This document shows, in pieces, positions 26,401-56,188 of a stretch of 64,000 bases of DNA. This DNA is from Muricea muricata. Its lineage: Eukaryota; Cnidaria; Anthozoa; Malacalcyonacea; Plexauridae. Every line of letters starts with the position of its first letter. The first letter of the stretch is position 1. A program made the translations under genes and the position numbers. The DNA is taken from assembly GCA_963855995.1 (NCBI GenBank), contig OY979724.1, forward strand, positions 6,611,772-6,675,771. Direction: 5' to 3'. The notes under the pieces were generated by a model. It was not told the DNA's origin. It saw nothing but the letters and a program-made list of their open reading frames with translations, and made no database searches.

Positions 26401-29400
26401 AGGTACATGTTAATAGCATTCTGATTTTACTCAAAATCATTGAAAATATTGAAATCTACACATGGGAATCCCACAATTTGTTTATAACAAGTTGTGCCTG
26501 TGCCAAATGTGTTGAAATATGAAAACAAGTTGTGAGCTGCCGTGAGTTTATAAAACTATTACAAGCTGGTCAAAAATTATGCCATATACAATATGCTATA
26601 ATATGATCATATAATTTTATTTTTCACAATAACATCTATAACATCATTGTGGTTTTAATGATATTTACAAACAAGCATATTCCTTAGGTTTATATATTGT
26701 GTCCTGTGTTTGCCGTGGAATTGAAAAGCGTAGATACATGTACGCCTAGCAAGCCTATTTTTTAGTACTTTTGTCGTATTGTTTTGGTAACGGTATCAGC
26801 AATAACAGCGTAAAAGCTGGAAAACCAAAGTTTAAAACAGGAGAACAAACAATTTCCTGTAATGATTTGTGGAGCATGTAGTGCAGACTAATAGGTTATT
26901 CTACCAAATCACAACACACATCCGGGTTATCATGAGATGCGCACGCACCGCCGCGGATCAGTGCATTGTTTATCGCTGTTGGATCCAGTGCTTCCATTTT
27001 CAAGGAAATTTCCTTTTCTAAGGAAATTCTACTGTCGAAAAGGAAAGTCTAAGGAAGAGAAAAAATCTGAGGAAATCTAAGGAAATCTAAATTTTTTTTT
27101 GAAAAACATAAATATTCATTAAAAGTACATTAAAACAAAAGAAGTTTTCGCTATTTTCTCAAATTTTGAATAAATTTACTAAATTATTTACTGATTATGT
27201 CATTATGTTGACTGTGTTTAGTTAAAAATCTGTTTTGAACTTTTTCCTTCCGTTTTCGAAAACTTCCGAAAGATTTTTGAGCGATGGAATTTAGTAGCTT
27301 TGGGCGCCAAAGTGAGCAAAACGCTGTGAATAGTTTTTTTAAAAAAACAGTCACTGTAAAAAGTTGATGAAGTTTGCGCACACAGTCATGTCAGATTTCG
27401 AGGGGCCATCGTTGGCAAATGGCAATGGCAGATGATCTTAAATAAATGTTGTAACAAGTATTTCATTTTAAACTGTAAAAAAGCTTGCGGTTTTTAGCAA
27501 ACCCACTTCTTGCTATTTTTGAGGCAATTTTGTGCCTTTGGAATTAATTAAATCCTTTGTTTTGGCTCGTGTTTTGCCTCAAAATCACCGAAAAGGCTGA
27601 AAGCGGCATAACGAATTTCCAGGAAACTTCCAGGAAATTTGAAGGACATTTTAAGGATTTAAAGGAAATCTTGAGGGCAAAAATGAGAAATTTTGGTTTT
27701 CAAAAATGGAAGCACTGGTTGGATCAACATGTGACTTGCTTTCAGGAGCATTTCTGTCGTTAATTTGTATCCCTAGTTTACGAAATTTATTGTATATTTC
27801 AGGTAGGTACATGTGTTCGTTTCTGATTTCCTTATTTTATCGATGTAGTAGACGAGTTCTGCTATATTGTCCTTTACAACGTTGAATTGCCGGTTTTGTG
27901 ACGTGTCACATTGCCAAGCTCGGTTGCTTGCAGGACGTGTCCTGTATCTACCGCTTAAACTCAGACGAGTGTAAGACGTGTCTTCGCTCCTTCTTATTGG
28001 GCTTGTACACATAAGTGCCCACTTAGCCTTCACACCTATCTGTTTAGGTCATGGAGCAAACGAGAGCTGTCAGAGTTGAATCTGAAGCTAATGCCGACCT
28101 CGAAAGCGGTCCTTCTACGAGCCAGTTAAAAAATATGTTTAAAGAATTGCTCGATGAGACTAAGCAGGATATCTTGACACAGGTCCAGGATAATATTAAT
28201 CAAATTTATTCAGATTTTGAAATGGTTACACTTGATAATGAAGTGGCAGGCTCCCTTGCAGGAGTTTCTGACCCTGGCCTCACGGATAAAATTGAAAGCT
28301 TTGTGCAACCGGTACAGGCTGATACGTTGCCTGACGATTAGGGCAGTTCAAGTGTAGATGCGTCCTTTCAGAACTTTGGCAAACGAACTTTGGCAGACGA
28401 GTTTTCTGTGTCTGAACGAACATCTGCCCCTATTTCTATAGGCTTAACTGAGATTGGTAATGGTCTTTTAAAGGATAAACTGCCCAAAGAAAAATTACAG
28501 GAGGTGCAACCCAAATATGTCAGACCAGAAAATTGCCCCAATTTGGTTCCTCCTAAAGTGAACAAACAGATTTGGCAGCAAATGCGTCAAGACACTAGAA
28601 ATACTGACTCTGCTCTACAGAAAGCTCAAGGGCTAATGATTGCAGGCCTTTGTGCTGTTCTCGAAGTATGTAATAAATCCGTTGGGGACCAGAAACGCAT
28701 CCTTACTCATTCTGCTGTCTTACTTCTTGCGGCAAATAGAGAATTTAACCTAAAACGTAGAGACTTAATTCGGCCCGATTTAAACAAGCATTATGGCTCA
28801 TTGCGTAATCCCTCTGTGGCTATATCAACCCAGTTGTTTGGGGATGATCTTAACAAGGAAGTGGAAGAGGTTACAAAATCTAATAAACTTAGAGGTAAAG
28901 TTACCTCTAAACCACATTCCAATGATCGATTCGAGCCCTATAAGTTATCCTGTGGCAGGGGCACTCGTGGGCGTGGCCGTTTTCATCAGCCCACTGGCCG
29001 AGGCCGAGCACGTTCTTTTTTAGGCGCAGGCCGGGGTCAAACCCGGCCACCATCCAATCCACCCAAGACCCCATACACCAAAAGTCAGTAGGATCACCAA
29101 ATACGGTAAGTAATGATCTTGCCTCTATTATTGATAATCAACCTCCATTTTCAGCGGGGAGTTTAAAACATTGTGTGCATGCATGGGCAGAAATTACATC
29201 AGACCCATTTATCCTGGATGCTGTTACCCACTGTCACATTGAGTTTGATGCTCTGCCTGGTTCCAATATTAATAAGACTAAGCCCTATTTCACTTTTAAT
29301 AAGTCTGAGCAATTGATCATTGATGCTGAGATTGCAAAATTTCTTCAAAAAGGAATAATTAAGCTGTCAGCCTCAGAACCTGGTGAAGTTATCTCACCAA

Positions 29401-32400
29401 TTTTCATTACTCCCAAAAAAGATGGGTCTAGTAGAGCAATATTTAACCTTAAAGGTTTGAATGAATTTGTGTCCTATCACCATTTTAAGATGGATACTCA
29501 AGAAACGGCTATTAAGCTCATGAGGCCAGGATGTTTTATGACATCCATTGACCTTAAAGATGCATATTATTCCATTCCAGTTGCACCTGAGTGCCAAAGT
29601 ATCTTAAATTCGTCTGGAAAGAAACATTATATTGTTTCACTTGTTTACCTATGGGCTTGACTAGTAGTCCTCGTATATTTACTAAGGTGCTGAAGCCCGT
29701 TTTTGCGTCATTACGAACTAAATTTGGCCACACCTGCTTAGGATATATAGATGATTCTCTTTATATGGAAGACACACAGGAAGATTGCCTGTGGGCCACA
29801 TTGCATGCTGTTCAGCTCATCAGTAAATTAGGGTTTCAGATTCATCCAGAAAAGTCTGTTCTTATGCCCACTCAGTGTATTGAATTCCTGGGTTTTCTAC
29901 TAGATTCTACTTCCATGACGGTAAGACTTACCTCCCCTAAAAGGGATAAACTTGTGCAGATGTGTCAAAAATTTCTACAGCCCAACAAATTATACACCAT
30001 TCGTCAAGTGGCATCATTAATTGGGTCATTAGTTTCTTCGTTTCCTGGGGTTGAGTTTGGTCCCCTGCATTATCGTGCTTTGGAGGCAGACAAAGATTCT
30101 CACCTCCGAATGCATCAAGGTCATTTTGATGCATTAATGTCTCTTTCGGCTGGGAGTTTAGAAGACTTAAATTGGTGGGTATTCCACTTCCCATCTGCCA
30201 GTAAGAATATTTACCATTCCCCACCCAATCTAATATTACACACTGATGCATCAGGCATTGGCTGGGGTGCTACGCCAAGTAATGGGAGTACTACACGCGG
30301 TATTTGGTCCCAAACTGAGGCTTCTCGGCATATCAATTACCTTGAGTTACAGTCTGTTTATTTGGCCCTCTCATCATTGTTAAATAATGAAACGAATGTT
30401 CATGTTCGTGTTATGTGCGATAATGCTACTGCAGTGACTTATATCAACGAGATGGGTGGATGTAAGTCTGAGCAGTGTAATTCTGTTGCTAAATTGATTT
30501 GGAATTGGGCCATTGCCCGACGTATTTGGGTGTCAGCAGCTCACGTTGCTGGATCGGCCAACATTAATGCTGACCATTTGTCCCGCAATGTTAATTTAAA
30601 TTTAGAATGGATGTTGTCGACTGCTACGTTTCAAGCTATTGTTAACATGTTTGGTCAGCCTGACATCGACCTTTTCGCTAGCAGACTGAATGCCCAACTT
30701 GAGACGTATGTCTCATGGCAACCAGACCCAAAGGCGAAATATATAGATGCCTTCTCGATTGTATGGTCAGGTTTCTTTTACGCTTTTCCACCATTTTGCC
30801 TTGCCTCTAGATGTGTACAGAAAATTATACAAGACAAAGCAACAGGAATTCTAGTAATTCCGTTATGGCCAACACAACGGTTTTTCTCCGTGGTGCTCAG
30901 CCTGCTGATGGAAGTGCCACGTATGCTCAACGTGACTCGTCACAACTAGGTTCATTCTACCTTGGCGGGTCCTCATCCACTTCAGGATCAACTGAAGCTC
31001 CTGGTATGCAAATTATCCGGCGATCCTTGGAGGACGCAGACATTCCACCAGACGTTACTGACGTCATCATGCATTCCTGGCGACGCAGTACTCACAAACA
31101 GTATGATCACTACATCGCAAAATGGGTGCAGTTTTGTAGTCAAGGGACGGGTGATCCCCTGCGTCCCACTGTGAAAGGTCTATTGATGTTTCTACATTCA
31201 TCATACCGGAAAGGTATGACCTATTCGTCTCTTAATACAGCTCGGTCTGCAGTTTCGAATCTTGATTCTATCGGTAAACATTTTTTGGTTTCCAAATACC
31301 TCAAGGGCGTATTTCATGAAATTAAACCAGTTCCGAAATATCGTTCTATTTGGTCGGTCGATCCTGTGCTACATTATTTGTTTTCTTTATGGCCGTTAGA
31401 CAAGTTACCGCTCAAGGAACTTTCGCTCAAATTAGTATTACTGGTTGCTTTAACGACTGGACAGCGGTGTCAGACGTTGACATTTTTGGACGTCTCGGCG
31501 GAGTATATGGCTAAATCAGTGGATTGTTATCGTTTTTCTCTTACTGAACACATTAAGCAGGACAGACCGGGCAGGGTTTATGGAAGCCTATGTCTGTACA
31601 AATATACGGTTAAAGAACTATGTGTGTATGAAACTTTAGAATGTTATTTAAATGTCACTGCTAAGCTGAGATCTTCTACGAAGTTATTTGTGTCCTATAT
31701 TAAACCTTATGGTGCTGTGACAGCATCGACTATTGGACGATGGATTAAGACTTTGTTAGAGAAAGCTGGTGTTGATACAAAACAGTTTTCTGCTCACAGC
31801 ACTCGAAGTGCTTCGACTAGCAAAGGGCGGCTTCAATCCCAGTGGACATAATCTTAGCCACTGCGGGCTGGAAAGAAGAGTCTACATTTCGACGTTTTTA
31901 CAACAAGCCAGTGGCAGTTACAAATCAAATGAGTTTAGCTGTGTTAGACCGATAATTTTGATCGTAGTGTATGTTGTCTGTCAACTTATTAATATACAAA
32001 TTTCTCTTTTTACATTTGAGTGTTTCTATTCAATTTTGTGCTCACAGCTTTGAAATCTCATGATAACCCGGATGTGTGTAGTGTTTTGGTAGAATTAAAA
32101 ATTAAACGAGACTTACCTGAAGTTGAAGTTTGATTAAAATTCTGACAAATCACTACAGCACAGAAGGGTTAACATGCCCTTTTCTGTCCCATCTACGTTT
32201 TTCCGTCCCATGCAATTTAGTTGCTAGTTTGTGCTTTTAAGTGACCACAAAATCGTTGACTTCGAAAGCTGATCCGCGGCGGTGCGTGCGCATCTCATGT
32301 TAACCCTTCTGTGCTGTAGTGATTTGTCAGAATTTTAATCAAACTTCAACATCAGGTAAGTCTCGTTTAATTTTTAATTATATATAGGTTAAAGCCGAGG

Positions 32401-41344: not shown

Positions 41345-41849
41345 GTAAATAATATACAAGATAGCACATAAGTAACAGACATCAGATTCAATAGCCGATT
41401 GCTAGTACTGACATTTTGCGCACTGAAAGGAATTTGTTTGTTTACTTCTATTACTGATATTTTATACTGGATATTTTGTGTAATCAACTAACAGTACCCA
41501 TTTTATGTTTGAATTTTGAATAAAAAATAATATTCACAAAGGAAGGATCATCGTCAGATGATAGTTTATCGCTTTATTTACCTATTTCAGATTTATATCA
41601 TACTACATGCCGGTTATAAACATGCATGTTCAATTCACTTCTGTGAAACTACCACAGGATTCACCACAGGATTCGTTCTTTCTAAAATTAACCAATGCGA
41701 AGTTACCACAGGACTCAGCGTCATTCGTTCATCCCCAAATTAGACGAACGCGAGCTTAGCACAGGATTCAGATCTGGCCACAGCGTGATTAAATATGACG
41801 AACTGAACCATGAGTAAACCAGGCAATGTTTTTTGAAATTAAGGGGCGC

Positions 41850-44800
41850 GGGAACATCCTATTTACTCGAATAACATATCAAACGAAAGCCCATTCTTCG
41901 TACTTCACAAATATATCATTTTTAACGTGGCACAAATTAGTGGCTTCACTATACGGGACGGCAAACGAGATGAACGCTCCCTGCACCAGAAACTGCATAT
42001 TAATTTATATTGCAATATTATTTCACGCAATCGGAAAACGACTGATTTTTGTCGAGAGAAACGGTTCTCATTTGCTTGAATAACATATCGATCGAAAGCC
42101 CATATTGCATAGATTACAAGGATGTATTTTTTAGCCTGGCACAAATTCGTGTCTTCATTCTACGGGCCGAGAAACGAGAGGGAACGCACGCTTGATACTT
42201 GTAGCTGCATAATAATTATTTTTGCTCAATCGGAAATACAACTGACTTTTGTCAAGAGAAACGGTTCTTATTTGCTTGAATAACATATCTATCGAAAGCC
42301 CATATCGCATAGATTACAAATACGTAATTTCTGGCCTGGCACAAATTCGCTGTTTTAATCTACGGGCAGCCAAAGGAGACGGAAGGCATGTTTGACATGT
42401 TAATTATTTTCCAGCAATGCTAAATATACGCGATTTTTGCCAAGAGAAACGGTTCGTATCTCCTTGAATAACATATCGATAGAAAGCCCGTGGCCTGTAT
42501 ATTACAAAGATGTAACTTTTAGCCTGGCACAAATTCGTGCCTACATTCTACGAGATGCGAAACCGCAAACAATACACGCATAACAATGTTCGATACTATT
42601 GTACGCACTTCGAACATCAGCAATTTTCGTCCCGAGAAACGGCTTCTTTCCGCTTGAATAAGCTATCAACAGAAAGCTAATACATAGTAGATTACGATTA
42701 TGCGATATTTAAACTGGCACAAATTCATCGATACATTTTACAGCACGGGGAACGCAATAAAACGCCCGCCGCCGATTCGGAATTCCATAACATGCCTTCC
42801 GTCCCTCGAAAACTGGCCCGGATTTTAGTCCGAAAAACGTCTCCAATCCACTTGAAAACATATCAGTAGACACCCCATGCTCCGTAGATTAGAAATATGT
42901 TAAATTCAAGCTGGCACAAATTCGTCGCTCCACTCTATAGACGAGAAAACGATTTTGTGAAGCTACCACAGGATTCGAACGCTCGAAGACGCATACTAAT
43001 TAACTCTGACAACGTAAACAACAAACGATGATGTCATTGAGGAATACGACATGAAAATGTAGTATTCTATAATAATTGACGCGCACGCGAAAACGTGCGA
43101 TTTTTGAAAGAGAATCATCCCGAATATAGTCGAATAGCATATCATTAAAAAGCCCACAGCCTATAGATTACAAATATGTAATTTCTAGCCTGGCACAAAT
43201 TCGCTGTTTTAATCTACGGAAGGTGAAACAAGTAGAACGCTAGCTCGACACGTCAAACTGCATATTAATTGTTTTTGCGCAATCAAAAATATACGCGATT
43301 TTTGTCAAGACAAACGGCTTGTATCTGCTTGAATAACATATCGATCGAAAGCCCATATTGCCTAGATTACAAGGATATATTTTTTAGCCTGGCACAAATT
43401 CGTGTCTTCATTCTACGGGCCGACAAACGAGAGGGAACGCACGCTTGAGACTTGTAGCTGCATAATAATTATTTTTGCTCAATCGGAAAAACAAGTGATT
43501 TTTGACAAGAGAAACGGTTCTTATTTGCTTGAATAACATATCTATCGAAAGCCCATATCGCATAGATTACAAGAATATATTTTTTAGCCTGGCACAAATT
43601 CGTGTCTTCATTCTACGGGCCGACAAACGAGAGGGAACGCACGCTTGAGACTTGTAGCTGCATAATAATTATTTTTGCTCAATCGGAAAAACAAGTGATT
43701 TTTGACAAGAGAAACGGTTCTTATTTGCTTGAATAATATATCTATCGAAAGCCCATAATGCATAGATTACAAATACGTAATTTCTAGCCTGGCACAAATT
43801 CGCCGTTTTAATCTACGGGCAGCCAAAGGAGACGGAAGGCATGTTTGACATGTTAATTATTTTCCAGCAATGCTAAATACACGCGATTTTTGCCAAGAGA
43901 AACGGTGCGTATGTCCTTGAGTAACATATCGATAGAAAGCCCGTGGCCTGTATATTACAAAGATGTAATTTTTAGCCTGGCACAAATTCGTGCCTACATT
44001 CTACGAGACGCGAAACCACAAACAATACACGCATAACAATGTTCGATACTATTGTACGCACTTCGAACATCAGCAATTTTCGTCCCGAGAAACGGCTTCT
44101 TTCCGCTTGAATAAGCTATCAACAGAAAGCTAATACATAGTAGATTACGATTATGCGATATTTAAACTGGCACAAATTCATCGATACATTTTACAGCACG
44201 GGGAACGCAATAAAACGCCCGCCGCCGATTCGGAATTCCATAACATGCCTTCCGTCCCTCGAAAACTGGCCCGGATTTTAGTCCGAAAAACGTCTCCAAT
44301 CCACTTGAAAACATATCAGTAGACACCCCATGCTCCGTAGATTAGAAATATGTTAAATTCAAGCTGGCACAAATTCGTCGCTCCACTCTATAGACGAGAA
44401 AACGATTTTGTGAAGCTACCACAGGATTCGAACGCTCGAAGACGCATACTAATTAACTCTGACAACGTAAACAACAAACGATGATGTCATTGAGGAATAC
44501 GACATGAAAATGTAGTATTCTATAATAATTGACGCGCACGCGAAAACGTGCGATTTTTGAAAGAGAATCATCCCGAATATAGTCGAATAGCATATCATTA
44601 AAAAGCCCACAGCCTATAGATTACAAATATGTAATTTCTAGCCTGGCACAAATTCGCTGTTTTAATCTACGGAAGGTGAAACAAGTAGAACGCTAGCTCG
44701 ACTATTCAAGCTGCATGTTACTTATTTTTACGCAAGCAAGAATATACGCGATTTTTGTCAAGAGAAACGGCTTGTATCTGCTTGAATAACATATCGATCG

Positions 44801-45020
44801 AAGGCCCATATTGCACAGATTACAAGGATATATTTTTTAGCCTGGCACAAATTCGTGCCTACATTCTACGAGGCGCGAAACTAGAGACATGTATTGGTTG
44901 ACCGGATTTTGTCTCCTCGAAAACATACAGTATCAATCAAATGCTCATAGTCAATGTATTACAAATATAAAATAGTTATACCGGTACAAATTGGTGGTTT
45001 CGATCTACGGGATGTAAAAT
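41850..45020 (+). repeat. Tandem-repeat part of the left foldback arm
   Basis: About fifteen units of near 190 bp, each with a TGGCACAAATTCG-type core followed by a CTACGGG-type block and a GAGAAACGG-type block. A higher-order block of about 950 bp (around 42290-43245) is repeated about 1453 bp further on (around 43742-44698), which the right arm shows only once. Confidence 0.85.
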
Positions 45021-45265
45021 CAAAGTGCGATTTAATCTTACTTGGGCAGGCGTAAATGAAAGTAATAAATAGAAGGAATTTTTAAATTTCAGGTGGAAAT
45101 ATGGGTGACGTCATGTTGTAACTAAATTTGAACGCTGTTGTCTGATTGGCGTCTTTTGAGACTGACCGTTGACTTCAACGGTTTGAATTTTTCGTGAGCG
45201 AAAAATATCGTATATATCTTAAATATTTGTTGTTGTTTTTTTGTGGAAGATTCCTATTTTTCATA

Positions 45266-45550
45266 ATGAAACGAACTGTTGGTAGACGTTTGAAATTGGC
45301 TTTCAACGTTGATGACATATTGGCTGCTATGACAAGAATATGTGGCGATCCAAAGGAGACGTGGAGAGCAGTAAATGGATTTTGGGGAAAACTTGCCACG
45401 GAACTTGGTTTAAAGAATAAGATTCTGGTGAGGAAAAATTTAAATACGCGATGGATTAAAGACAGGAGAGGCCTTAGAAGCGAGTATGCGAAAATGTTAA
45501 AGGGAGAAGACAGTAGTCTATCCCGTCCGTATGGGATGGGAAGTATTTAG
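45266..45550 (+). CDS. Foldback left-arm ORF, 94-residue basic protein
   Basis: ATG at 45266 (the open frame begins 72 bases earlier at a GTG). The peptide is basic and probably helical: MKRTVGRRLKLAFNVDDILA, a RICGDPKETWRAVNGFWG stretch and a C-terminal KNLNTRWIKDRRGLRSEYAK. It might be a DNA-binding or regulatory protein, but no family is recognised. The copy in the right arm differs by one residue (Lys to Glu in WIKDRR). Confidence 0.5.
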   Translation: MKRTVGRRLKLAFNVDDILAAMTRICGDPKETWRAVNGFWGKLATELGLKNKILVRKNLNTRWIKDRRGLRSEYAKMLKGEDSSLSRPYGMGSI

Positions 45551-45592
45551 TATGCAAGGCTGTATGTAGAGAAATGACGTCATTGCAAGGAT

Positions 45593-45762
45593 GTGCGCAC
45601 GCTAGGATGTGCGCACTATCCCGATACACGCGAGGGTGTGTGCACTATCCCGATGCACGCGAGGATGTGTGCACTATCCGATACACGCGAGAATGTTCGC
45701 ACTATCCGGATGCACGCGAGGATGTGCGCATTATTCGATCCACACGAGGATGTGCGCACGGC
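45593..45762. repeat. Minisatellite in the left inner arm
   Basis: Five to six copies of a roughly 29-bp unit based on GATGCACGCGAGGATGTG-CGCACTATCC. It creates ORFs in several frames that are not genes. The mirror copy is at 50073-50242. Confidence 0.8.
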
Positions 45763-46030
45763 GGTATTCGGAAAAAACACGTTTTTAGAAAGATGTATTG
45801 ACAAAATGAAAATTTTACGTTACCTTAAGTATAAGTATACATATATAGGTTTAGATACTGTTTGTTTTAGATATTAGATACTGTTTGTCCTGCTGGTTTT
45901 ATGATGTTCACACATCAGTCCCAAGACACCCACAGTATGTAACTTGTCCGCATTCCAGGACGACGTCAAAGCACTGATCGGACTAGCATTATACATTCTG
46001 CGTGCACTGTTGTGTGTCAACAATTAGTTA

Positions 46031-46350
46031 TCATAAGCTGTTCGTTGTCGCTCTTTTTTCCAAACATAAAAAACATGGTTGATTGTCCGGGAATAATGTC
46101 CAGCAATAGCCACAACGTACTGTCCCGTCGACCACGGACGATGCTGCCCAATGTCTAAAACACTCACAGTGAGCACCTTGGTGACAACACGGTGTATTCA
46201 TAGCGAGTACCTCTTCGGCCTAGACATAGCTTCAAAACAGAAATGGCATTGCTTTTCTTCTATACCGTTTTCCGATAGTATACCAAATAGATGGATTATG
46301 GCTGTTGGCAAAATAACGCCTGGTGAAGGTAAAGCTCCAACTGTTCCCAT
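46031..46350 (-). CDS. Foldback left-arm RING-like zinc protein in two overlapping frames
   Basis: Mirror image of 49485-49804; see that entry for the analysis. One residue differs (Pro for Leu after DNQ). Confidence 0.45.
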
Positions 46351-46565
46351 TTTCGGATGTTGATGTCTTCAAGCGTATTATAAGTAAAGACTGGACAGGT
46401 GGCTCATGTGTGCTGCGAAGTATGAAAAGGGAGATAAAGGGGGTATGACGAATACGAAATCGTACTGATTTTGGAGAAAAATATTAGAGCGTTTCTTGGT
46501 TTGCATAAATTAACACACGGATTAACGTTTGGAATAATTTAATTTTGTAAGTATTACAGACAGTA

Positions 46566-46670
46566 GAGCTATATTTTGTTAGTCTCGTACAAGTTTATGC
46601 GATGAGCAGATGAGCATCTGCTCATAACTGCTCATGAGCACATGCTCATACGCTCATAAGGCCCTATGTG
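46566..46670. repeat. GAGCAGATGAGC / GCTCAT dyad cluster, left arm
   Basis: TATTTTGTTAGTCTCGTACA leads into clustered ATGAGCA and TGCTCAT words (ATCTGCTCATAACTGCTCAT). Related clusters are at 47370-47425 and 47451-47543, and mirrored in the right arm at 48292-48384, 48410-48465 and 49165-49269. Confidence 0.75.
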
Positions 46671-46821
46671 GCCCGATGGCCGAGCACATATGAAACATAC
46701 CATATTAAAATCTGATTGGTTTTTAGTTATCCTGCTAATATTATAAAATGATAATTTTGAGTCGGTAAGAGCATACCGCTTGCAACGTTCACAGAGATAA
46801 GACTTTTAGATTGCCAATTTA

Positions 46822-47037
46822 ATGGAGGAGAACTTATCGCGGTTACATGACCTGAACTTATCGCGGTTACATGACCTGAACAAGCGTGTGGCAGAGGCAA
46901 GAAAAAGAGTTGAATATTGGAAGAAAAAGAGAAATGCTTTATACCTTCGCAAAAGGACGGTTGACGTACAAACCTGGATGTTAAACAATTTTGTAGACGA
47001 TGCATGCCGTGGCCTCAAAGAAATAATTAAGACTTAG
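46822..47037 (+). CDS. Foldback left-arm ORF, 71-residue coiled-coil protein
   Basis: ATG start; begins MEENLSRLHDLNLSRLHDLN with a repeated 8-residue unit, then a KRVAEARKRVEYWKKKR heptad-like stretch. Identical in the right arm. No family recognised; it could be a dimerising accessory protein or a chance ORF kept by the arm identity. Confidence 0.4.
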   Translation: MEENLSRLHDLNLSRLHDLNKRVAEARKRVEYWKKKRNALYLRKRTVDVQTWMLNNFVDDACRGLKEIIKT

Positions 47038-47597
47038 AAACAACCAGGGAACGCTGTGCTTATATTTGTTATGTAGGATAGATCAAATAGAAATTCATCA
47101 TCTAATGAAAAGCTGTAGTACAGTTTCTAATGAAAAGCTGTAGTAAATAAAGGATACAAACCTGTTGAGTTTGTAGACGTTGTTTTATTTGCTTGTCCTT
47201 AATACATTCACCCCACACCGGTCTTACACTGACCCAACATAGACCTTTTGTCGGCCCCACACCACCCTCTAATCAACCTCGTATAAGCAGATGGTCATCT
47301 GCATATACCAATAGTTGGGATCTACACAATGGTTATAGCTGTCAATACCTAACAGTTAGGGCCTTATCAGCTTTTGAGCACCTGCTCATAACTGCTCATG
47401 AGCACATGCTCATACGCTCATAGGTCCCGATGTGGCTAGCCAAGTTAGTATAGCTATATTTTGTTAGTCTTGTACAAGTTTATGCGATGAGCAGATGAGC
47501 GGGTGCTCATAACTGCTCATGAGCACATGCTCATACGCTCATAAAAATACAGTGTTGCTCAGTGACAAGGCATTTCTACACAGTCAGTTCTAGCGGA

Positions 47598-48182
47598 ATG
47601 AGCTGTAAATTTTGCGGGAAAGCATTTAATCGTGATTTCAATCTCCGTCGACACGAAAACGAGCATTGTCCGCTGAAAAGCGAGGAGAGAGATATGTCAG
47701 AAACAGAAATTCAGAGCTCAGAAGATGATGCTTCGAGCATTGCAACTGACGGGTCTCAGAGTTCGATAACAGGAGACTCGGAAACTGAGGAGGAAGAAGT
47801 GGATCCTTGGATGCCCATGGTAGAAGAAGCGATACAAAAGCATAAGGCGGCTTTTCAGGAGATGAAGATGAATTTGACTCAAAGTGGTCTGGATGAGGAA
47901 ACCGCTGAGGAAACAGCTTACTCTAATATTCTGCCTGAGCTCCAAAAGGAATTGGAAAGTATCTATTTGCAGCGTCTCCAATGAATACAACAACTAAAGA
48001 AAGATCCAGTGCATAAGAAAATAATGGAAACAAAGGATGCGCTCGTGAACGATGATCATTTTGATCAAGAAGAGGCTATGGAAGCAGCTGTCAATAAGAG
48101 AAAATTTCTAATTAAAAGACATTTAAAAGACTACAGTTTTACTAGTTTTACTGAGGACAGTGATGATGAAGAAGATTATTAA
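47598..48182 (+). pseudogene. C2H2 zinc-finger acidic protein in the unique centre, one in-frame stop
   Basis: From ATG at 47598 the peptide starts MSCKFCGKAFNRDFNLRRHE with a classic C-x2-C-x12-H-x3-H finger. An acidic Ser/Glu-rich linker and a helical part (PWMPMVEEAIQKHKAAFQE, LQKELESIYLQRLQ) follow. A TGA at 47982-47984 stops it, but the same frame stays open for 65 more codons of similar style (KKDPVHKKIMETKDALVNDD ... DSDDEEDY) to a TAA at 48180-48182. An AATAAA follows at about 48210. The stop could be one base change from a Trp codon, or could be read through. It is the only single-copy gene of the element. The open frame begins upstream at a GTG (47562), but the ATG is the likely start. 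Confidence 0.6.
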
Positions 48183-48797
48183 CTACATTAATATTTGTCA
48201 TATTGTTCTCAATAAAATTATATATACATATCCGAGTTTGATATTATTTTAATATGTGGGAGGGTTATAACTGTCGGGCCACATAGGGACGTATGAGCGT
48301 ATGAGCATGTGCTCATGAGCAGTTATGAGCACCCGCTCATCTGCTCATCGCATAAACTTGTACAAGACTAACAAAATATAGCTATACTAACTTGGCTAGC
48401 CACATCGGGACCTATGAGCGTATGAGCATGTGCTCATGAGCAGTTATGAGCAGGTGCTCAAAAGCTGATAAGGCCCTAACTGTTAGGTATTGACAGCTAT
48501 AACCATTGTGTAGATCCCAACTATTGGTATATGCAGATGACCATCTGCTTATACGAGGTTGATTAGAGGGTGGTGTGGGGCCGACAAAAGGTCTATGTTG
48601 GGTCAGTGTAAGACCGGTGTGGGGTGAATGTATTAAGGACAAGCAAATAAAACAACGTCTACAAACTCAACAGGTTTGTATCCTTTATTTACTACAGCTT
48701 TTCATTAGAAACTGTACTACAGCTTTTCATTAGATGATGAATTTCTATTTGATCTATCCTACATAACAAATATAAGCACAGCGTTCCCTGGTTGTTT

Positions 48798-49013
48798 CTA
48801 AGTCTTAATTATTTCTTTGAGGCCACGGCATGCATCGTCTACAAAATTGTTTAACATCCAGGTTTGTACGTCAACCGTCCTTTTGCGAAGGTATAAAGCA
48901 TTTCTCTTTTTCTTCCAATATTCAACTCTTTTTCTTGCCTCTGCCACACGCTTGTTCAGGTCATGTAACCGCGATAAGTTCAGGTCATGTAACCGCGATA
49001 AGTTCTCCTCCAT
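48798..49013 (-). CDS. Foldback right-arm coiled-coil ORF (71 residues)
   Basis: Identical to the left-arm protein at 46822-47037. Confidence 0.4.
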   Translation of the reverse strand: MEENLSRLHDLNLSRLHDLNKRVAEARKRVEYWKKKRNALYLRKRTVDVQTWMLNNFVDDACRGLKEIIKT

Positions 49014-49484
49014 TAAATTGGCAATCTAAAAGTCTTATCTCTGTGAACGTTGCAAGCGGTATGCTCTTACCGACTCAAAATTATCATTTTATAATATTAG
49101 CAGGATAACTAAAAACCAATCAGATTTTAATATGGTATGTTTCATATGTGCTCGGCCATCGGGCCACATAGGGCCTTATGAGCGTATGAGCATGTGCTCA
49201 TGAGCAGTTATGAGCAGATGCTCATCTGCTCATCGCATAAACTTGTACGAGACTAACAAAATATAGCTCTACTGTCTGTAATACTTACAAAATTAAATTA
49301 TTCCAAACGTTAATCCGTGTGTTAATTTATGCAAACCAAGAAACGCTCTAATATTTTTCTCCAAAATCAGTACGATTTCGTATTCGTCATACCCCCTTTA
49401 TCTCCCTTTTCATACTTCGCAGCACACATGAGCCACCTGTCCAGTCTTTACTTATAATACGCTTGAAGACATCAACATCCGAAA

Positions 49485-49804
49485 ATGGGAACAGTTGGAG
49501 CTTTACCTTCACCAGGCGTTATTTTGCCAACAGCCATAATCCATCTATTTGGTATACTATCGGAAAACGGTATAGAAGAAAAGCAATGCCATTTCTGTTT
49601 TGAAGCTATGTCTAGGCCGAAGAGGTACTCGCTATGAATACACCGTGTTGTCACCAAGGTGCTCACTGTGAGTGTTTTAGACATTGGGCAGCATCGTCCG
49701 TGGTCGACGGGACAGTACGTTGTGGCTATTGCTGGACATTATTCCCGGACAATCAACTATGTTTTTTATGTTTGGAAAAAAGAGCGACAACGAACAGCTT
49801 ATGA
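49485..49804 (+). CDS. Foldback right-arm RING-like zinc protein in two overlapping frames
   Basis: Frame 1 (49485-49637, 50 residues) starts MGTVGALPSPGVILPTAIIH and ends with EEKQCHFCFEAMSRPKR. Frame 2 (49634-49804, 56 residues) starts in the same ATGA and reads MNTPCCHQGAHCECFRHWAA, then VRCGYCWTLF and NQLCFLCLEK. Taken together the cysteines and histidines fit a RING-type layout: C-x2-C, then CC-x4-H-x2-C-F-x2-W, then C-x2-C, with a further C-x2-C. Either a frameshift happened before the arms were duplicated, or the 4-base start-stop overlap is used for coupled or shifted translation. RING-like fingers bind zinc and often act in ubiquitin transfer; that role here is inference. Confidence 0.5.
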
Positions 49805-50284
49805 TAACTAATTGTTGACACACAACAGTGCACGCAGAATGTATAATGCTAGTCCGATCAGTGCTTTGACGTCGTCCTGGAATGCGGACAAGTTACATAC
49901 TGTGGGTGTCTTGGGACTGATGTGTGAACATCATAAAACCAGCAGGACAAACAGTATCTAATATCTAAAACAAACAGTATCTAAACCTATATATGTATAC
50001 TTATACTTAAGGTAACGTAAAATTTTCATTTTGTCAATACATCTTTCTAAAAACGTGTTTTTTCCGAATACCGCCGTGCGCACATCCTCGTGTGGATCGA
50101 ATAATGCGCACATCCTCGCGTGCATCCGGATAGTGCGAACATTCTCGCGTGTATCGGATAGTGCACACATCCTCGCGTGCATCGGGATAGTGCACACACC
50201 CTCGCGTGTATCGGGATAGTGCGCACATCCTAGCGTGCGCACATCCTTGCAATGACGTCATTTCTCTACATACAGCCTTGCATA

Positions 50285-50569
50285 CTAAATACTTCCCATC
50301 CCATACGGACGGGATAGACTACTGTCTTCTCCCTTTAACATTTTCGCATACTCGCTTCTAAGGCCTCTCCTGTCTTCAATCCATCGCGTATTTAAATTTT
50401 TCCTCACCAGAATCTTATTCTTTAAACCAAGTTCCGTGGCAAGTTTTCCCCAAAATCCATTTACTGCTCTCCACGTCTCCTTTGGATCGCCACATATTCT
50501 TGTCATAGCAGCCAATATGTCATCAACGTTGAAAGCCAATTTCAAACGTCTACCAACAGTTCGTTTCAT
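50285..50569 (-). CDS. Foldback right-arm basic ORF (94 residues)
   Basis: Mirror copy of 45266-45550 with a single residue change (Glu in WIEDRR). Confidence 0.5.
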   Translation of the reverse strand: MKRTVGRRLKLAFNVDDILAAMTRICGDPKETWRAVNGFWGKLATELGLKNKILVRKNLNTRWIEDRRGLRSEYAKMLKGEDSSLSRPYGMGSI

Positions 50570-53345
50570 TATGAAAAATAGGAATCTTCCACAAAAAAAC
50601 AACAACAAATATTTAAGATATATACGATATTTTTCGCTCACGAAAAATTCAAACCGTTGAAGTCAACGGTCAGTCTCAAAAGACGCCAATCAGACAACAG
50701 CGTTCAAATTTAGTTACAACATGACGTCACCCATATTTCCACCTGAAATTTAAAAATTCCTTCTATTTATTACTTTCATTTACGCCTGCCCAAGTAAGAT
50801 TAAATCGCACTTTGATTTTACATCCCGTAGATCGAAACCACCAATTTGTACCGGTATAACTATTTTATATTTGTAATACATTGACTATGAGCATTTGATT
50901 GATACTGTATGTTTTCGAGGAGACAAAATCCGGTCAACCAATACATGTCTCTAGTTTCGCGCCTCGTAGAATGTAGGCACGAATTTGTGCCAGGCTAAAA
51001 ATTACATCTTTGTAATATACAGGCCATGGGCTTTCTATCGATATGTTACTCAAGGAGATACGCACCGTTTCTCTTGGCAAAAATCGCGTGTATTTAGCAT
51101 TGCTGGAAAATAATTAACATGTCAAACATGCCTTCCGTCTCCTTTGGCTGCCCGTAGATTAAAACGGCGAATTTGTGCCAGGCTAGAAATTACGTATTTG
51201 TAATCTATGCATTATGGGCTTTCGATAGATATATTATTCAAGCAAATAAGAACCGTTCCTCTTGTCAAAAATCACTTGATTTTCCGATTGAGCAAAAATA
51301 ATTATTATGCAGCTACAAGTCTCAAGCGTGCGTTCCCTCTCGTTTGTCGGCCCGTAGAATGAAGACACGAATTTGTGCCAGGCTAAAAAATATATCCTTG
51401 TAATCTATGCAATATGGGCTTTCGATCGATATGTTATTCAAGCAGATACAAGCCGTTTGTCTTGACAAAAATCGCGTATATTTTTGATTGCGCAAAAACA
51501 ATTAATATGCAGTTTGACGTGTCGAGCTAGCGTTCTACTTGTTTCACCTTCCGTAGATTAAAACAGCGAATTTGTGCCAGGCTAGAAATTACATATTTGT
51601 AATCTATAGGCTGTGGGCTTTTTAATGATATGCTATTCGACTATATTCGGGATGATTCTCTTTCAAAAATCGCACGTTTTCGCGTGCGCGTCAATTATTA
51701 TAGAATACTACATTTTCATGTCGTATTCCTCAATGACATCATCGTTTGTTGTTTACGTTGTCAGAGTGTCAGAGTTAATTAGTATGCGTCTTCGAGCGTT
51801 CGAATCCTGTGGTAGCTTCACAAAATCGTTTTCTCGTCTATAGAGTGGAGCGACGAATTTGTGCCAGCTTGAATTTTAAATATTTCTAATCTACGGAGCA
51901 TGGGGTGTCTACTGATATGTTTTCAAGTGGATTGGAGACGTTTTTCGGACTAAAATCCGGGCCAGTTTTCGAGGGACGGAAGGCATGTTATGGAATTCCG
52001 AATCGGCGGCGGGCGTTTTATTGCGTTCCCCGTGCTGTAAAATGTATCGATGAATTTGTGCCAGTTTAAATGTCGCATAATCGTAATCTACTATGTATTA
52101 GCTTTCTGCTGATAGCTCATTCAAGCGGAAAGAAGCCGTTTCTGAGGACGAAAATTGCTGATTTTGGAAGTGCGTACAATAGTATCGAACATTGTTACGC
52201 GTGTATTGTTTGTGGTTTCGCGTCTCGTAGAATGTAGGCACGAATTTGTGCCAGGCTAAAAATTACATCTTTGTAATATACAGGCCATGGGCTTTCTATC
52301 GATATGTTACTCAAGGAGATACGCACCGTTTCTCTTGGCAAAAATCGCGTGTATTTAGCATTGCTGGAAAATAATTAACATGTCAAACATGCCTTCCGTC
52401 TCCTTTGGCTGCCCGTAGATTAAAACGGCGAATTTGTGCCAGGCTAGAAATTACGTATTTGTAATCTATGCATTATGGGCTTTCGATAGATATATTATTC
52501 AAGCAAATAAGAACCGTTACTCTTGTCAAAAATCACTTGATTTTCCGATTGAGCAAAAATAATTATTATGCAGCTACAAGTCTCAAGCGTGCGTTCCCTC
52601 TCGTTTGTCGGCCCGTAGAATGAAGACACGAATTTGTGCCAGGCTAAAAAATATATTCTTGTAATCTATGCGATATGGGCTTTCGATAGATATGTTATTC
52701 AAGCAAATAAGAACCGTTTCTCTTGACAAAAGTCAGTTGTATTTCCGATTGAGCAAAAATAATTATTATGCAGCTACAAGTATCAAGCGTGCGTTCCCTC
52801 TCGTTTCTCGGCCCGTAGAATGAAGACACGAATTTGTGCCAGGCTAAAAAATACATCTTTGTAATCTATGCATAACAAGCAAATGAGAACCGTTTCTCTC
52901 GACAAAAATCAGTCGTTTTCCGATTGCGTGAAATAATATTGCAATATAAATTAATATGCAGTTTCTGGTGCAGGGAGCGTTCATCTCGTTTGCCGTCCCG
53001 TATAGTGAAGCCACTAATTTGTGCCATGTTAAAAATGATATATTTGTGAAGTACGAAGAATGGGCTTTCGTTTGATATGTTATTCGAGTAAATAGGATGT
53101 TCCCGCGCCCCTTAATTTCAAAAAACATTGCCTGGTTTACTCATGGTTCAGTTCGTCATAATTAATCACGCTGTGACCGGATCTGAATCCTGTGCTAAGT
53201 TCGCGTTCGTCTAATTTGGGGATGAACGAATGACGCTGAGTCCTGTGGTAACTTCGCATTGGTTAATTTTAGAAAGAACGAATCCTGTGGTGAATCCTGT
53301 GGTAGTTTCACAGAAGTGTTCAATTCAGATATACATATAATATGC

Positions 53346-56188
53346 TACTACTGTGAAACTGTCCCCACATTGGTCCCCACATTCGTCCTCACATTCCTCC
53401 CCACATTCTCCCCACATTTGCCCCACATTCATTATGAGATTATATAAACAGATTAAGACCACCTGCGATACCCTTACTATTTCCAATCATTCGAAAAGCC
53501 TTTAACTTTACATATATCAAGCTTTTAGCATTCAAAATACTTTCAATTTTAGTCTCTGAAGCAATAATAATTACAGCTGTTGCGACTTATACTTTAAAGG
53601 TTAAAATAAAAAAATTACCATTTCTGGGGAACAAATTTTCTCCATGTTTCTCTGCAACTTAAATGTCAGTCATTGTAATATATATGATATTAACTGCACA
53701 ATCAATGAGCCATCTGCCTACGAGTGCTACCAACTTAATTTTGTAGTTACTTCTTCTACAGAATTTTTTTATTTTCACATAAATGATACAGATTTTTATG
53801 CTCATTCCAGCCATATATCACAAGTTCTGAGGAATAACTTTTGTCTATGTGTTTTTGCATCTTAAATATCAGTAAATTTGAAACAATATCAGCATTAAAT
53901 GTGCCAGACGAGTTGGGCATGAGTAACATCAACTTTATTTTCTAATTACCTATTCTATAGATTTTTTTTATTTTCACATACATGGTAAAAATTTTCATGG
54001 TGTTTCTAATAACATATCACTATTTCTGCGGAATAACTTCTCTGTATCTGTTTATGCATCCTAAATATCAGTCTTTCTAATATGATATTTAGTGTAAAAT
54101 CAATGAGCCAACTGCGTATCAGTGATACCAATCTAATTTTCTAGTTACCTATTCTATAAATTTTCTTTATTTTTGCATATATGATATAGATTTTATGCTT
54201 TTTCCAACAATATATCCCAAGTTCTGGGGAATAACTTTTCTGTATACGTTTTTGCAACATAAATATCAGCAATCGTAATATGATATTTACAATGATTGAG
54301 CCAAATACCAACTTAATTTTTTAGTTACCTATTCTATAAAGTTTTTTTGTTTTCACATATATGGTATAGATTTTCATGCTCTTTCTAACGATATATCACA
54401 TGTTCTGGAAAATAACTTTTCTGTATGCGTTTTTTCAACTTAAATATCAGCAATCGTAATATGATATTTACAATCATTGAGCCAAATACCAACTTAATTT
54501 TCTAGTTACCTATTCCATAAATTTTTTTTGTTTTCACATATATGATATAGATTTTCATGCTCTTTCTAACGATATATCACAAGTTCTGGGGAATAACTTT
54601 TCTGTATACGTTTTTGCAACTTAAATATCAGCCATCGTAATTTGATATTTACAATCATTGAGCCAAATACCAACTTAATTTTCTAGTTACCTATTCTATA
54701 AATTTTTTTTGTTTTCACATATATGGTATAGATTTTCATGCTCTTTCTAACGATATGTCACAAATTCTAAGGAATAACTTTTCTGTATGCGTTTTTGCAA
54801 CTTAAATGTCAGTCATAGTAATATGATATTTAGAATCATTGAGCCAAATGCGTACCAGCGTTACCTACTTAATTTTCTAGTTACCTATTCTATAATTATT
54901 TTTTGTTTTCACATATATTATATAGATTTCATGCTCTTTCTAACGATGTACCACAAGTTCTGTGGAATCAATGTTCTATATAATATACGTGAAAATAAAA
55001 AATTATAGAGTAGGTAACTAGAAAATTAAGTTGGTATTTGGCTCAATGATTGTAAATATCATATTACGATGACTGACATTTAAGTTGCGAAAACGCATAC
55101 AGAAAAGTTATTCCCCAGAATTTGTGATACATCGTTAGAAAGAGCATGAAAATCTATATCATATATGTGAAAATTAAAAAAATGCATAGAATAGGTGAGT
55201 AGAAAATTAGATTGGTAGCAATGATACGCAGTTGGCTCATTGATTGTACACTAAACATCATATTACAATGACTGATATTTACGATGCATAAACACATACA
55301 GAAAAGTTATTCCCCAGAACTTGGGATATATTGTTAGAAAAAGCATAAAATCTATATCATATATTCAAAAATAAAGAAAATTTATAGAATAGGTAACTAG
55401 AAAATTAGATTGGTATCACTGATACGCAGTTGGCTCATTGATTTTACACTAAATATCATATTAGAAAGACTTATATTTAGGAGGGATAAACAGATACAGA
55501 AAAGTTATTCCACAGAAATTGTGATATATGATTAGAAAGACCATGAAAATTTTTACCAAGTATGTGAAAATAAAAAAGACCTATAGAATAGGTAATTAGA
55601 AAATAAAGTTGATGTTACTCATGCTGAACTCGTCTTGCACATTTAATGCTGATATTGTTTCAAATTTACTGATATTTAAGAAGCAAAAACACATAGACAA
55701 AAGTTATTCCCCAGAACTTGTGATATATTGCTGGAATGAGCATAAAAATCTGTATCATTTATGTGAAAATAAAAAAATTCTATGGTAAAAGTAACTAGAA
55801 AATTAAGTTGGTAGCACTCGTAGGCAGATGGCTCATTGATTGTACAGTAAATATCATATTACAATGACTGACATTTAAGTTGCAGAGAAACATGGAGAAA
55901 ATTTTTTCCCCAGAAATGGTAATTTTGTCATTTTAACCTTTATAGTATAAGTCGCAAGAGCTGTAATTATTATTGCTTCAGAGAGGAAAATTGAAAGTAT
56001 TTGGAATGCTTAAAGCTTGATGTACAGGTAACGGCTGTTCAAATGATTGGAAATAGTAAGCATACCACAGGTGGTCTTAATCTGTTTATATAATCTCATA
56101 ATGAATGAGGGGCGAATGTGCGGAGAATGTGGGGAGGAATGTGATGACGAATGTGGGGACCAATGTGGGGGACAGTTTCACAATAGTA
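53346..56188. mobile_element. Second foldback element, 2.8 kb, non-coding
   Basis: TACTACTGTGAAACTGTCCC at the left and its near-perfect inverse at the right bound two arms that meet near 54980 with almost no spacer. The terminal 80 bp is a run of CCCCACATT-type words. The inner arms are tandem units of about 180 bp containing TTGAGCCAAATACCAACTTA and TCTAGTTACCTATTCTATAA. The CTGTGAAACT end is shared with the larger element 28 bp away. No target duplication and no coding capacity. Confidence 0.85.
53640..55910. repeat. Mirrored tandem units of the second foldback
   Basis: Left copies run forward to about 54970 and right copies run in reverse from about 54985. Each unit includes TTCTGGGGAATAACTTTTCT and CATATATG(A/G)TATAGATTTTCA. 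ORFs here come from the repeats. Confidence 0.85.

What the first reader, a model, noticed from the sequence alone, without database searches (positions are those of the whole stretch)
41636..53318. Large coding foldback element without a recognised transposase
A complete insertion: perfect inverted ends, a 7-9 bp target duplication, 5.9- and 5.0-kb arms and a 748-bp single-copy centre. Known foldback elements are mostly non-coding or carry a P-like transposase in the centre. This one carries a C2H2 zinc-finger acidic protein in the centre and three ORFs in each arm (basic helical, RING-like, coiled coil). It could be a mobile element with a novel replication or transposition protein set, or a derivative of a larger DNA virus-like or transposon parent.
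Basis: partly seen in the sequence, partly recalled or inferred. Interest (0 to 1): 0.9.

Follow-up and report, generated by a model that had tools for sequence, protein, structure and literature searches.

The report
Palindromic Polinton relic inside foldback transposon
The large mirror-image insert is two nested mobile elements: a foldback transposon that carries, at its centre, a mirror-image remnant of a virus-like Polinton (Maverick) element, and other mirror-image Polinton remnants have spread in the same genome.

Summary
In detail: a complete inverted-repeat insertion (41637-53317) with a perfect 9-bp target duplication. It is two nested elements, not one new protein system. (1) Outer arms: a foldback transposon; 15 of 16 end pairs found have perfect 9-bp duplications, and two core-less copies read in full are non-coding. 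(2) The core (45512-50323: 2.0-kb mirrored arms, 748-bp centre) stands alone elsewhere, with 6-bp duplications in 8 of 11 copies. Two 17-kb Polintons with polymerase genes share its (AGT)2 tips and carry one RING gene, without stops, 435-500 bp from one tip. The core has that RING end on both sides, so it is a non-autonomous, symmetrical Polinton derivative. In 12 foldback copies the core appears to cut the 94-residue ORF, and that flank is mirrored. RING and C2H2 frames carry stops in 12 of 12 of these copies; the 94-residue frame has none. The foldback transposase was not found, and C2H2 genes showed no link to polymerase genes. Formation by snap-back replication of the Polinton, and later outward mirroring, is inferred. 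The component kinds are known; I found no description of germline-fixed snap-back Polintons in nine literature searches.

The parts
41628..41636 (.). left 9-bp target-site duplication GTTCAATTC
41637..44886 (+). outer foldback arm (left): tip ACTTCTGTGAAACTACCACAGG, then ~200-bp tandem repeats
   Evidence: two core-less copies (L092, L093) consist only of this sequence in inverted arms
44887..45511 (+). foldback central flank, left copy, ending at the core tip
   Evidence: mirrored on the right
45266..45550 (+). 94-residue basic helical ORF (left copy); last residues read into the core tip
45512..50323 (.). core: symmetrical non-autonomous Polinton derivative, 4812 bp, tips AGTAGTCTATCCC... 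(variant of AGTAGTATTACC...)
46031..46368 (-). RING gene, left copy, broken (stop and frameshift)
46822..47037 (+). 71-residue coiled-coil ORF, left copy
47544..48291 (+). single-copy centre of the core
47598..47984 (+). C2H2 zinc-finger acidic ORF (128 codons, then TGA; frame open again to 48182)
48798..49013 (-). 71-residue coiled-coil ORF, right copy
49467..49804 (+). RING gene, right copy, broken (coordinates by mirror arithmetic)
50285..50569 (-). 94-residue ORF, right copy
50324..50948 (-). foldback central flank, right copy (limits by mirror arithmetic)
50949..53317 (-). outer foldback arm (right), shorter repeat array
53318..53326 (.). right 9-bp target-site duplication GTTCAATTC

Best explanation
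Two nested mobile elements. Shown: (a) the outer element is a foldback transposon with internally repetitive arms and 9-bp duplications that also exists without any gene in the two core-less copies read; (b) the core is a separate mobile element with mirrored 2-kb arms, (AGT)2 tips and 6-bp duplications; (c) its tips and sub-tip sequence, and its RING gene in the same place and direction, are those of 17-kb Polintons in the same genome that carry a polymerase gene; (d) the core has the RING end of the Polinton on both sides; (e) in 12 foldback copies the core sits between mirrored copies of the flank holding the 94-residue ORF, with no 6-bp duplication at the window copy. Inferred: during protein-primed Polinton replication a strand folds back or switches template, giving an asymmetric snap-back molecule (RING end, loop, RING end); keeping both tips, it is integrated by a Polinton integrase in trans and spreads. 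One such core went into the central gene of a foldback element; a repair event (for example break-induced copying primed from one core arm into the other) then copied one flank onto the other side, and the enlarged foldback was spread by a foldback transposase acting in trans.
For: 9-bp duplications in 15 of 16 foldback end pairs. Core alone with exact 6-bp duplications in 8 of 11 copies examined; further mirrored elements with the same tips and 6-bp duplications: 4 of 5 pairs examined. Two full-length Polintons (C1:104649983-104667087, C5:11834504-11851783) with polymerase hits inside, 6-bp duplications, one RING match without stops at 435 and 500 bp from one tip. Polinton RING-end sequence beyond the shared TIR aligns with the core arm, score 99 against a maximum of 27 in 200 shuffles. 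RING within 25 kb of a polymerase hit: 13 of 137 rows against 1.2 expected, 11 of 82 polymerase loci. 10 of 22 tip pairs hold two RING copies in mirror orientation; in 9 of these both lie 425-560 bp from their tip. Arms of one copy differ by 0-0.21% in 9 of 11 copies; the window arms differ at 1 of 1988 sites while its arm differs from those of nine other foldback copies by 0.40-1.24%. A core elsewhere (C4:2.84M) also has mirrored outer flanks and no 6-bp duplication. (AGT)2 end motif and 6-bp duplications are reported for vertebrate Mavericks (PMC8097293, passages). Snap-back genomes with a single-stranded loop are reported for AAV (PMC8235507, passages).
Against: The process was not observed. 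C2H2 genes were within 40 kb of a polymerase hit in only 3 of 150 rows (2.2 expected), and no C2H2 match was listed inside the two full-length Polintons (150 of 759 candidates scored), so the centre may not be original Polinton sequence. The core tip's minisatellite is closer to the polymerase-side Polinton end than to the RING end, so the tip is a mixture. No transposase was found for the foldback. Polymerase and RING lists were capped. Mirror arms could also be kept alike by ordinary gene conversion; three foldback copies (C15, C2:53, C8) differ from each other no more than their own arms do. 3 of 11 lone cores have no 6-bp duplication.
Confidence: 0.72

Rival explanations
1. Same parts, but the mirrored Polintons arose on the chromosome by host repair (hairpin or break-induced copying between inverted sequences), not by snap-back during Polinton replication.
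For: Outward mirroring of chromosomal flanks is seen at a lone core (C4:2.84M) and around the core in the foldback, which must be a chromosomal event; many long mirrored loci exist.
Against: Lone mirrored cores carry intact tips on both sides and 6-bp duplications (8 of 11), so they were integrated as ready-made symmetrical molecules; independent families are symmetrical to the tip.
Confidence: 0.3
2. One coding foldback element whose six arm ORFs and C2H2 protein form a new transposition or replication system.
For: 12 near-identical copies carry all parts; the 94-residue frame is open in 24 of 24 copies and was not found without the core in this genome.
Against: RING and C2H2 frames contain stops in 12 of 12 of these copies; core and foldback each exist alone.
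Confidence: 0.05
3. Assembly or long-read foldback artefact.
For: Foldback artefacts in long reads are described (PMC12870357, seen in a search listing).
Against: Perfect 9-bp duplications with different sequence at 15 loci and 6-bp duplications at lone cores; unequal outer arms; a single-copy centre.
Confidence: 0.02
4. The core is a cut-and-paste transposon of another superfamily that merely resembles a Polinton at its tips.
For: It carries no polymerase, integrase or capsid gene.
Against: Shared 85-bp TIR, shared sub-tip sequence and RING gene with polymerase-bearing 17-kb elements.
Confidence: 0.03

Closest known systems
Polinton/Maverick self-synthesising transposons
   Same: (AGT)2 tips, 6-bp duplications, shared TIR and RING gene with 17-kb polymerase-bearing elements of this genome; reported features read in passages of PMC8097293 and PMC10045372
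   Different: 4.8 kb instead of 17 kb, symmetrical (same end twice), no polymerase, integrase or capsid gene seen
Foldback elements: Galileo (P superfamily), Tm1 (Mutator/Phantom), Drosophila FB-NOF (recalled)
   Same: Long internally repetitive arms; for Tm1 also 9-bp duplications (PMC3169594, passages); arm expansion by recruitment of inner sequence is reported for Galileo (PMC3573991, passages)
   Different: No transposase found; the centre is a mirrored Polinton derivative; Galileo makes 7-bp duplications
Snap-back subgenomes of AAV (PMC8235507, passages); symmetrical defective adenovirus genomes (recalled)
   Same: One end of a linear genome with terminal repeats present twice around a loop
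   Different: Those are extrachromosomal and use another replication mode (AAV); here the form is fixed and multiplied in the germline
Coral CMITEs (PMC2872659, abstract)
   Same: A novel element created by insertion of one mobile element into another is reported there
   Different: Short piggyBac-related elements, unrelated ends

Membership tests
Polinton/Maverick (core) | 6-bp target-site duplication | tested here: met
   8 of 11 lone cores; not at the core junctions inside the window foldback (GAAGAC / GTCTTC)
Polinton/Maverick (core) | AG- or AGT-repeat tips and TIR shared with polymerase-bearing elements | tested here: met
   window core bears a tip variant AGTAGTCTATCCC
Polinton/Maverick (core) | protein-primed polymerase B, integrase, packaging and capsid genes | tested here: not met
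   no such ORF or Pfam match in the core; it is a non-autonomous derivative, not an autonomous Polinton
Polinton/Maverick (core) | gene content shared with full-length elements (RING) | tested here: met
Polinton/Maverick (core) | C2H2 gene shared with full-length elements | tested here: inconclusive
   3 of 150 near a polymerase hit, 2.2 expected; lists capped
Foldback (outer element) | long, internally repetitive inverted arms | tested here: met
Foldback (outer element) | constant-length target duplication | tested here: met
   9 bp in 15 of 16 pairs
Mutator/MULE superfamily (outer element) | MULE transposase (PF10551) inside the element or a copy | tested here: not met
   103 matches listed (150 of 269 candidates scored), none inside the 16 end-pair intervals by reading the list; 9-bp duplication alone fits
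P superfamily (as Galileo) | 7- to 8-bp duplication and P/THAP transposase | tested here: not met
   duplications are 9 bp; a transposase search for this superfamily was not run

The most novel reading that the evidence does not exclude
Polintons in this animal recurrently shed snap-back (defective-interfering-like) genomes that integrate in the germline, multiply as a stable class of symmetrical elements using Polinton enzymes in trans, mirror neighbouring DNA outward and so generate new palindromic transposons such as the window's foldback; their head-to-head arms could also give double-stranded RNA against the parent Polinton.
Probability: 0.25. Interest if true: 0.88.

Novelty: new variant of a known kind. 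Interest (0 to 1): 0.68.

Why it matters
Whether Polintons replicate as free linear molecules is hard to test directly. Symmetrical, tip-complete derivatives with 6-bp duplications are a genomic trace of such molecules, and they are recent here (foldback copies differ by about 0.05-1.2%). The window also shows how one element's palindrome can be built into another: a foldback with a mirrored Polinton core that spread to 12 loci. Mirrored elements of this size matter for genome stability and for small-RNA silencing.

Tried and rejected
Rejected or left open. (1) A single coding foldback system: see rivals. (2) THAP/P-element reading of the + strand ORF at 46151: dropped, because the opposite strand holds the RING gene and Pfam gave nothing for that ORF. 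(3) MULE transposase inside the foldback: none in 16 intervals. (4) C2H2 as a Polinton gene: not supported by position. (5) Structure prediction: 94-residue protein mean pLDDT 53.8, four helices, too weak for a fold search; C2H2 protein mean 65.1, a helical C-terminal part; no fold search was run. (6) viral-contig scan with the C2H2 protein: 5 pattern matches, no relative confirmed. (7) A first idea that the core's arms are the polymerase-side end of the Polinton (note) was corrected after the RING search: RING and inner sequence match the opposite end, although the tip minisatellite is closer to the polymerase-side end. (8) The 17,105-bp tip pair at C1:3519725-3536829 has a 6-bp duplication (AATGTA) and a core at its right side; read as a core with a ~12.4-kb nested insertion, not proven. 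(9) The coiled-coil protein search of the genome did not complete, so its presence in Polintons is untested.

Counts dropped: 13 N-terminal RING fragments (rows matching residues 1-44 or 1-45) were left out (137 of 150 rows used). One polymerase position per locus was used (82). The window printed an 8-bp duplication because of an off-by-one slice; one search shows 9.
Full report
OBSERVATION. The inverted repeat is present with a 748-bp centre; outer arms hold ~200-bp tandem repeats. The element runs from 41637 to 53317 with a 9-bp duplication GTTCAATTC. The window lies on contig C9 of an unnamed 453-Mb genome in 74 contigs; the host was not identified.

OUTER ELEMENT. The 22-base tip, with up to 2 mismatches, occurs at 40 places; the backwards control gives none. 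These make 16 facing pairs and 8 single ends. Perfect 9-bp duplications flank 15 of 16 pairs; the exception, C3:27.75M, has flanks that are reverse complements of each other over the 20 bp read. Twelve pairs enclose the core; four do not. Two core-less copies (C11:5.33M, 6.0 kb; C4:5.13M, 9.1 kb) were read in full: they are covered by outer-arm sequence and have no stop-to-stop frame of 90 codons or more. The other two (C2:51.8M, C3:27.75M) were not read inside. MULE transposase matches exist in the genome (103 listed, 150 of 269 candidates scored), none inside the 16 intervals (by reading the list).

94-RESIDUE ORF. It occurs 24 times at 12 loci, two mirrored copies at each, without stops in 24 of 24; two other matches have 33% identity. 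Database relatives number 8; of 6 fetched, 5 differ after the residue where the core tip begins here, so the core seems to have cut a longer gene. One distant relative lies upstream of a cysteine-rich frame, with no Pfam match above cut-off. No transposase identity could be shown.

CORE. Copies of the centre (41 matches, 40 of 356 candidates scored) and of the inner arm (166 matches, 30 of 753 candidates scored) showed two classes: arms matching throughout, or only from about 45512 inward. One copy of the second class lies within a Penelope-like element (called so from a GIY-YIG-like frame seen by eye and the TA-repeat ends). Its ends, and those of ten more, read AGTAGTATTACC(C)n or variants; 8 of 11 have exact 6-bp duplications, 2 have none, and 1 (C4:2.84M) has none but mirrored outer flanks of about 250 bp (local score 463; the other ten score 18-45). 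So the core is a mobile element in its own right.

POLINTON LINK. The exact 14-base tip occurs at 69 places (control 0). Of 22 facing pairs under 20 kb, two (17.1 and 17.3 kb) contain polymerase B hits. Both have 6-bp duplications (TACTTC, CCCGTG). Their polymerase-side end is collinear with a core end for the ~145-175 bp compared; their other end shares about 85 bp of TIR and, after a stretch with a different minisatellite, aligns with the core arm further in (score 99; shuffles at most 27). A RING match without stops lies 435 and 500 bp from that other tip, in the place and direction it has in the core (519 bp). A second, more distant RING group (51-54% identity) lies about 2.8-5.1 kb from polymerase hits in eight loci. 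RING is therefore a Polinton gene here, and the core has the RING end on both sides. End motif (AGT)2 with 6-bp duplications is reported for vertebrate Mavericks (PMC8097293, passages). RING identity rests on zf-RING_2, E 8.8e-5, 23.1 bits, below the 27.3 cut-off, in one database relative (P0130).

OTHER SYMMETRICAL POLINTONS. Families of 6.8-7.6 kb have RING pairs without stops (C1:34.29M, C1:39.66M, C1:110.72M, C2:26.86M); the first three have 6-bp duplications, the last has none. A 7.8-kb stretch around a C2H2 pair is 98.9% palindromic.

COMPOSITE. At the window the six bases flanking the core are GAAGAC and GTCTTC: mirrored, not duplicated. The same junction is seen in 14 of 16 arms read from 9 of the 12 loci; the two arms of C1:9.68M differ by one base. 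One founding event is the simplest reading. Arms within a copy differ by 0-0.21% in 9 of 11 copies (C9:7.33M 1.13%, lone core C3:32.65M 0.50%), while left arms of different foldback copies differ by 0.05-1.24%; copies C15, C2:53 and C8 are as alike to each other as their own arms are. So arms are kept alike, and spread was recent. RING frames carry stops in 24 of 24 arms and C2H2 frames in 12 of 12 copies, so these copies are very probably moved by proteins from elsewhere.

AGAINST. C2H2 genes are not enriched near polymerase hits (3 of 150, 2.2 expected). The C2H2 gene has far more copies (759 candidates) than the core and also sits in an unlike multi-gene region (L072), so it may be a passenger. 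The foldback transposase and the integrase step are not shown.

LITERATURE. Nine searches listed no description of snap-back or palindromic Polintons, for non-autonomous Polintons by name, returned no paper. The library holds only openly licensed papers. Analogues: asymmetric snap-back genomes with a loop in AAV (PMC8235507, passages); arm expansion in Galileo (PMC3573991, passages); 9-bp duplications in Tm1 foldbacks with a MULE-type transposase (PMC3169594, passages).

VERDICT. Two known kinds of element, nested, with a new variant: germline-fixed symmetrical Polinton derivatives, one of which became the centre of a spreading foldback transposon.

Noticed in passing
L072 (C2:67761300-67769300): An intact C2H2 gene and coiled-coil gene lie beside frames with GRF zinc fingers (PF06839, E 9.9e-20), a possible N-myristoylation start and other unknown frames: perhaps another multi-gene element.
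   Followed up: partly
C3:27752127-27776824: A foldback tip pair whose outer flanks are reverse complements over the 20 bp read, with no 9-bp duplication: mirroring may continue outward.
   Followed up: no
C4:2840974-2845598: A lone core with about 250 bp of mirrored outer flank and no 6-bp duplication: a second case of outward mirroring.
   Followed up: partly
C1:9673560-9701451: A 27.9-kb foldback copy with a polymerase-bearing Polinton in its right arm.
   Followed up: partly
46603-46657, 47375-47421, 47487-47543 and mirror places: A short palindromic motif cluster (GCTCATGAGC-like) repeated around the coiled-coil and C2H2 genes; the C2H2 gene has the opposite orientation in L071, as if the cassette could invert.
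   Followed up: partly
C1:67259733-67259906 (L070): A distant relative (33%) of the 94-residue ORF, followed by a frame with a cysteine-rich PHD-like stretch (seen by eye); could be a transposon or host gene.
   Followed up: partly
window 3050-5278 and 28342-31851: Large frames that look like BEL/Pao and DIRS-type retrotransposon genes (by eye; no family search run).
   Followed up: no
window 53930-54982: A 181-bp tandem repeat array just outside the element.
   Followed up: no
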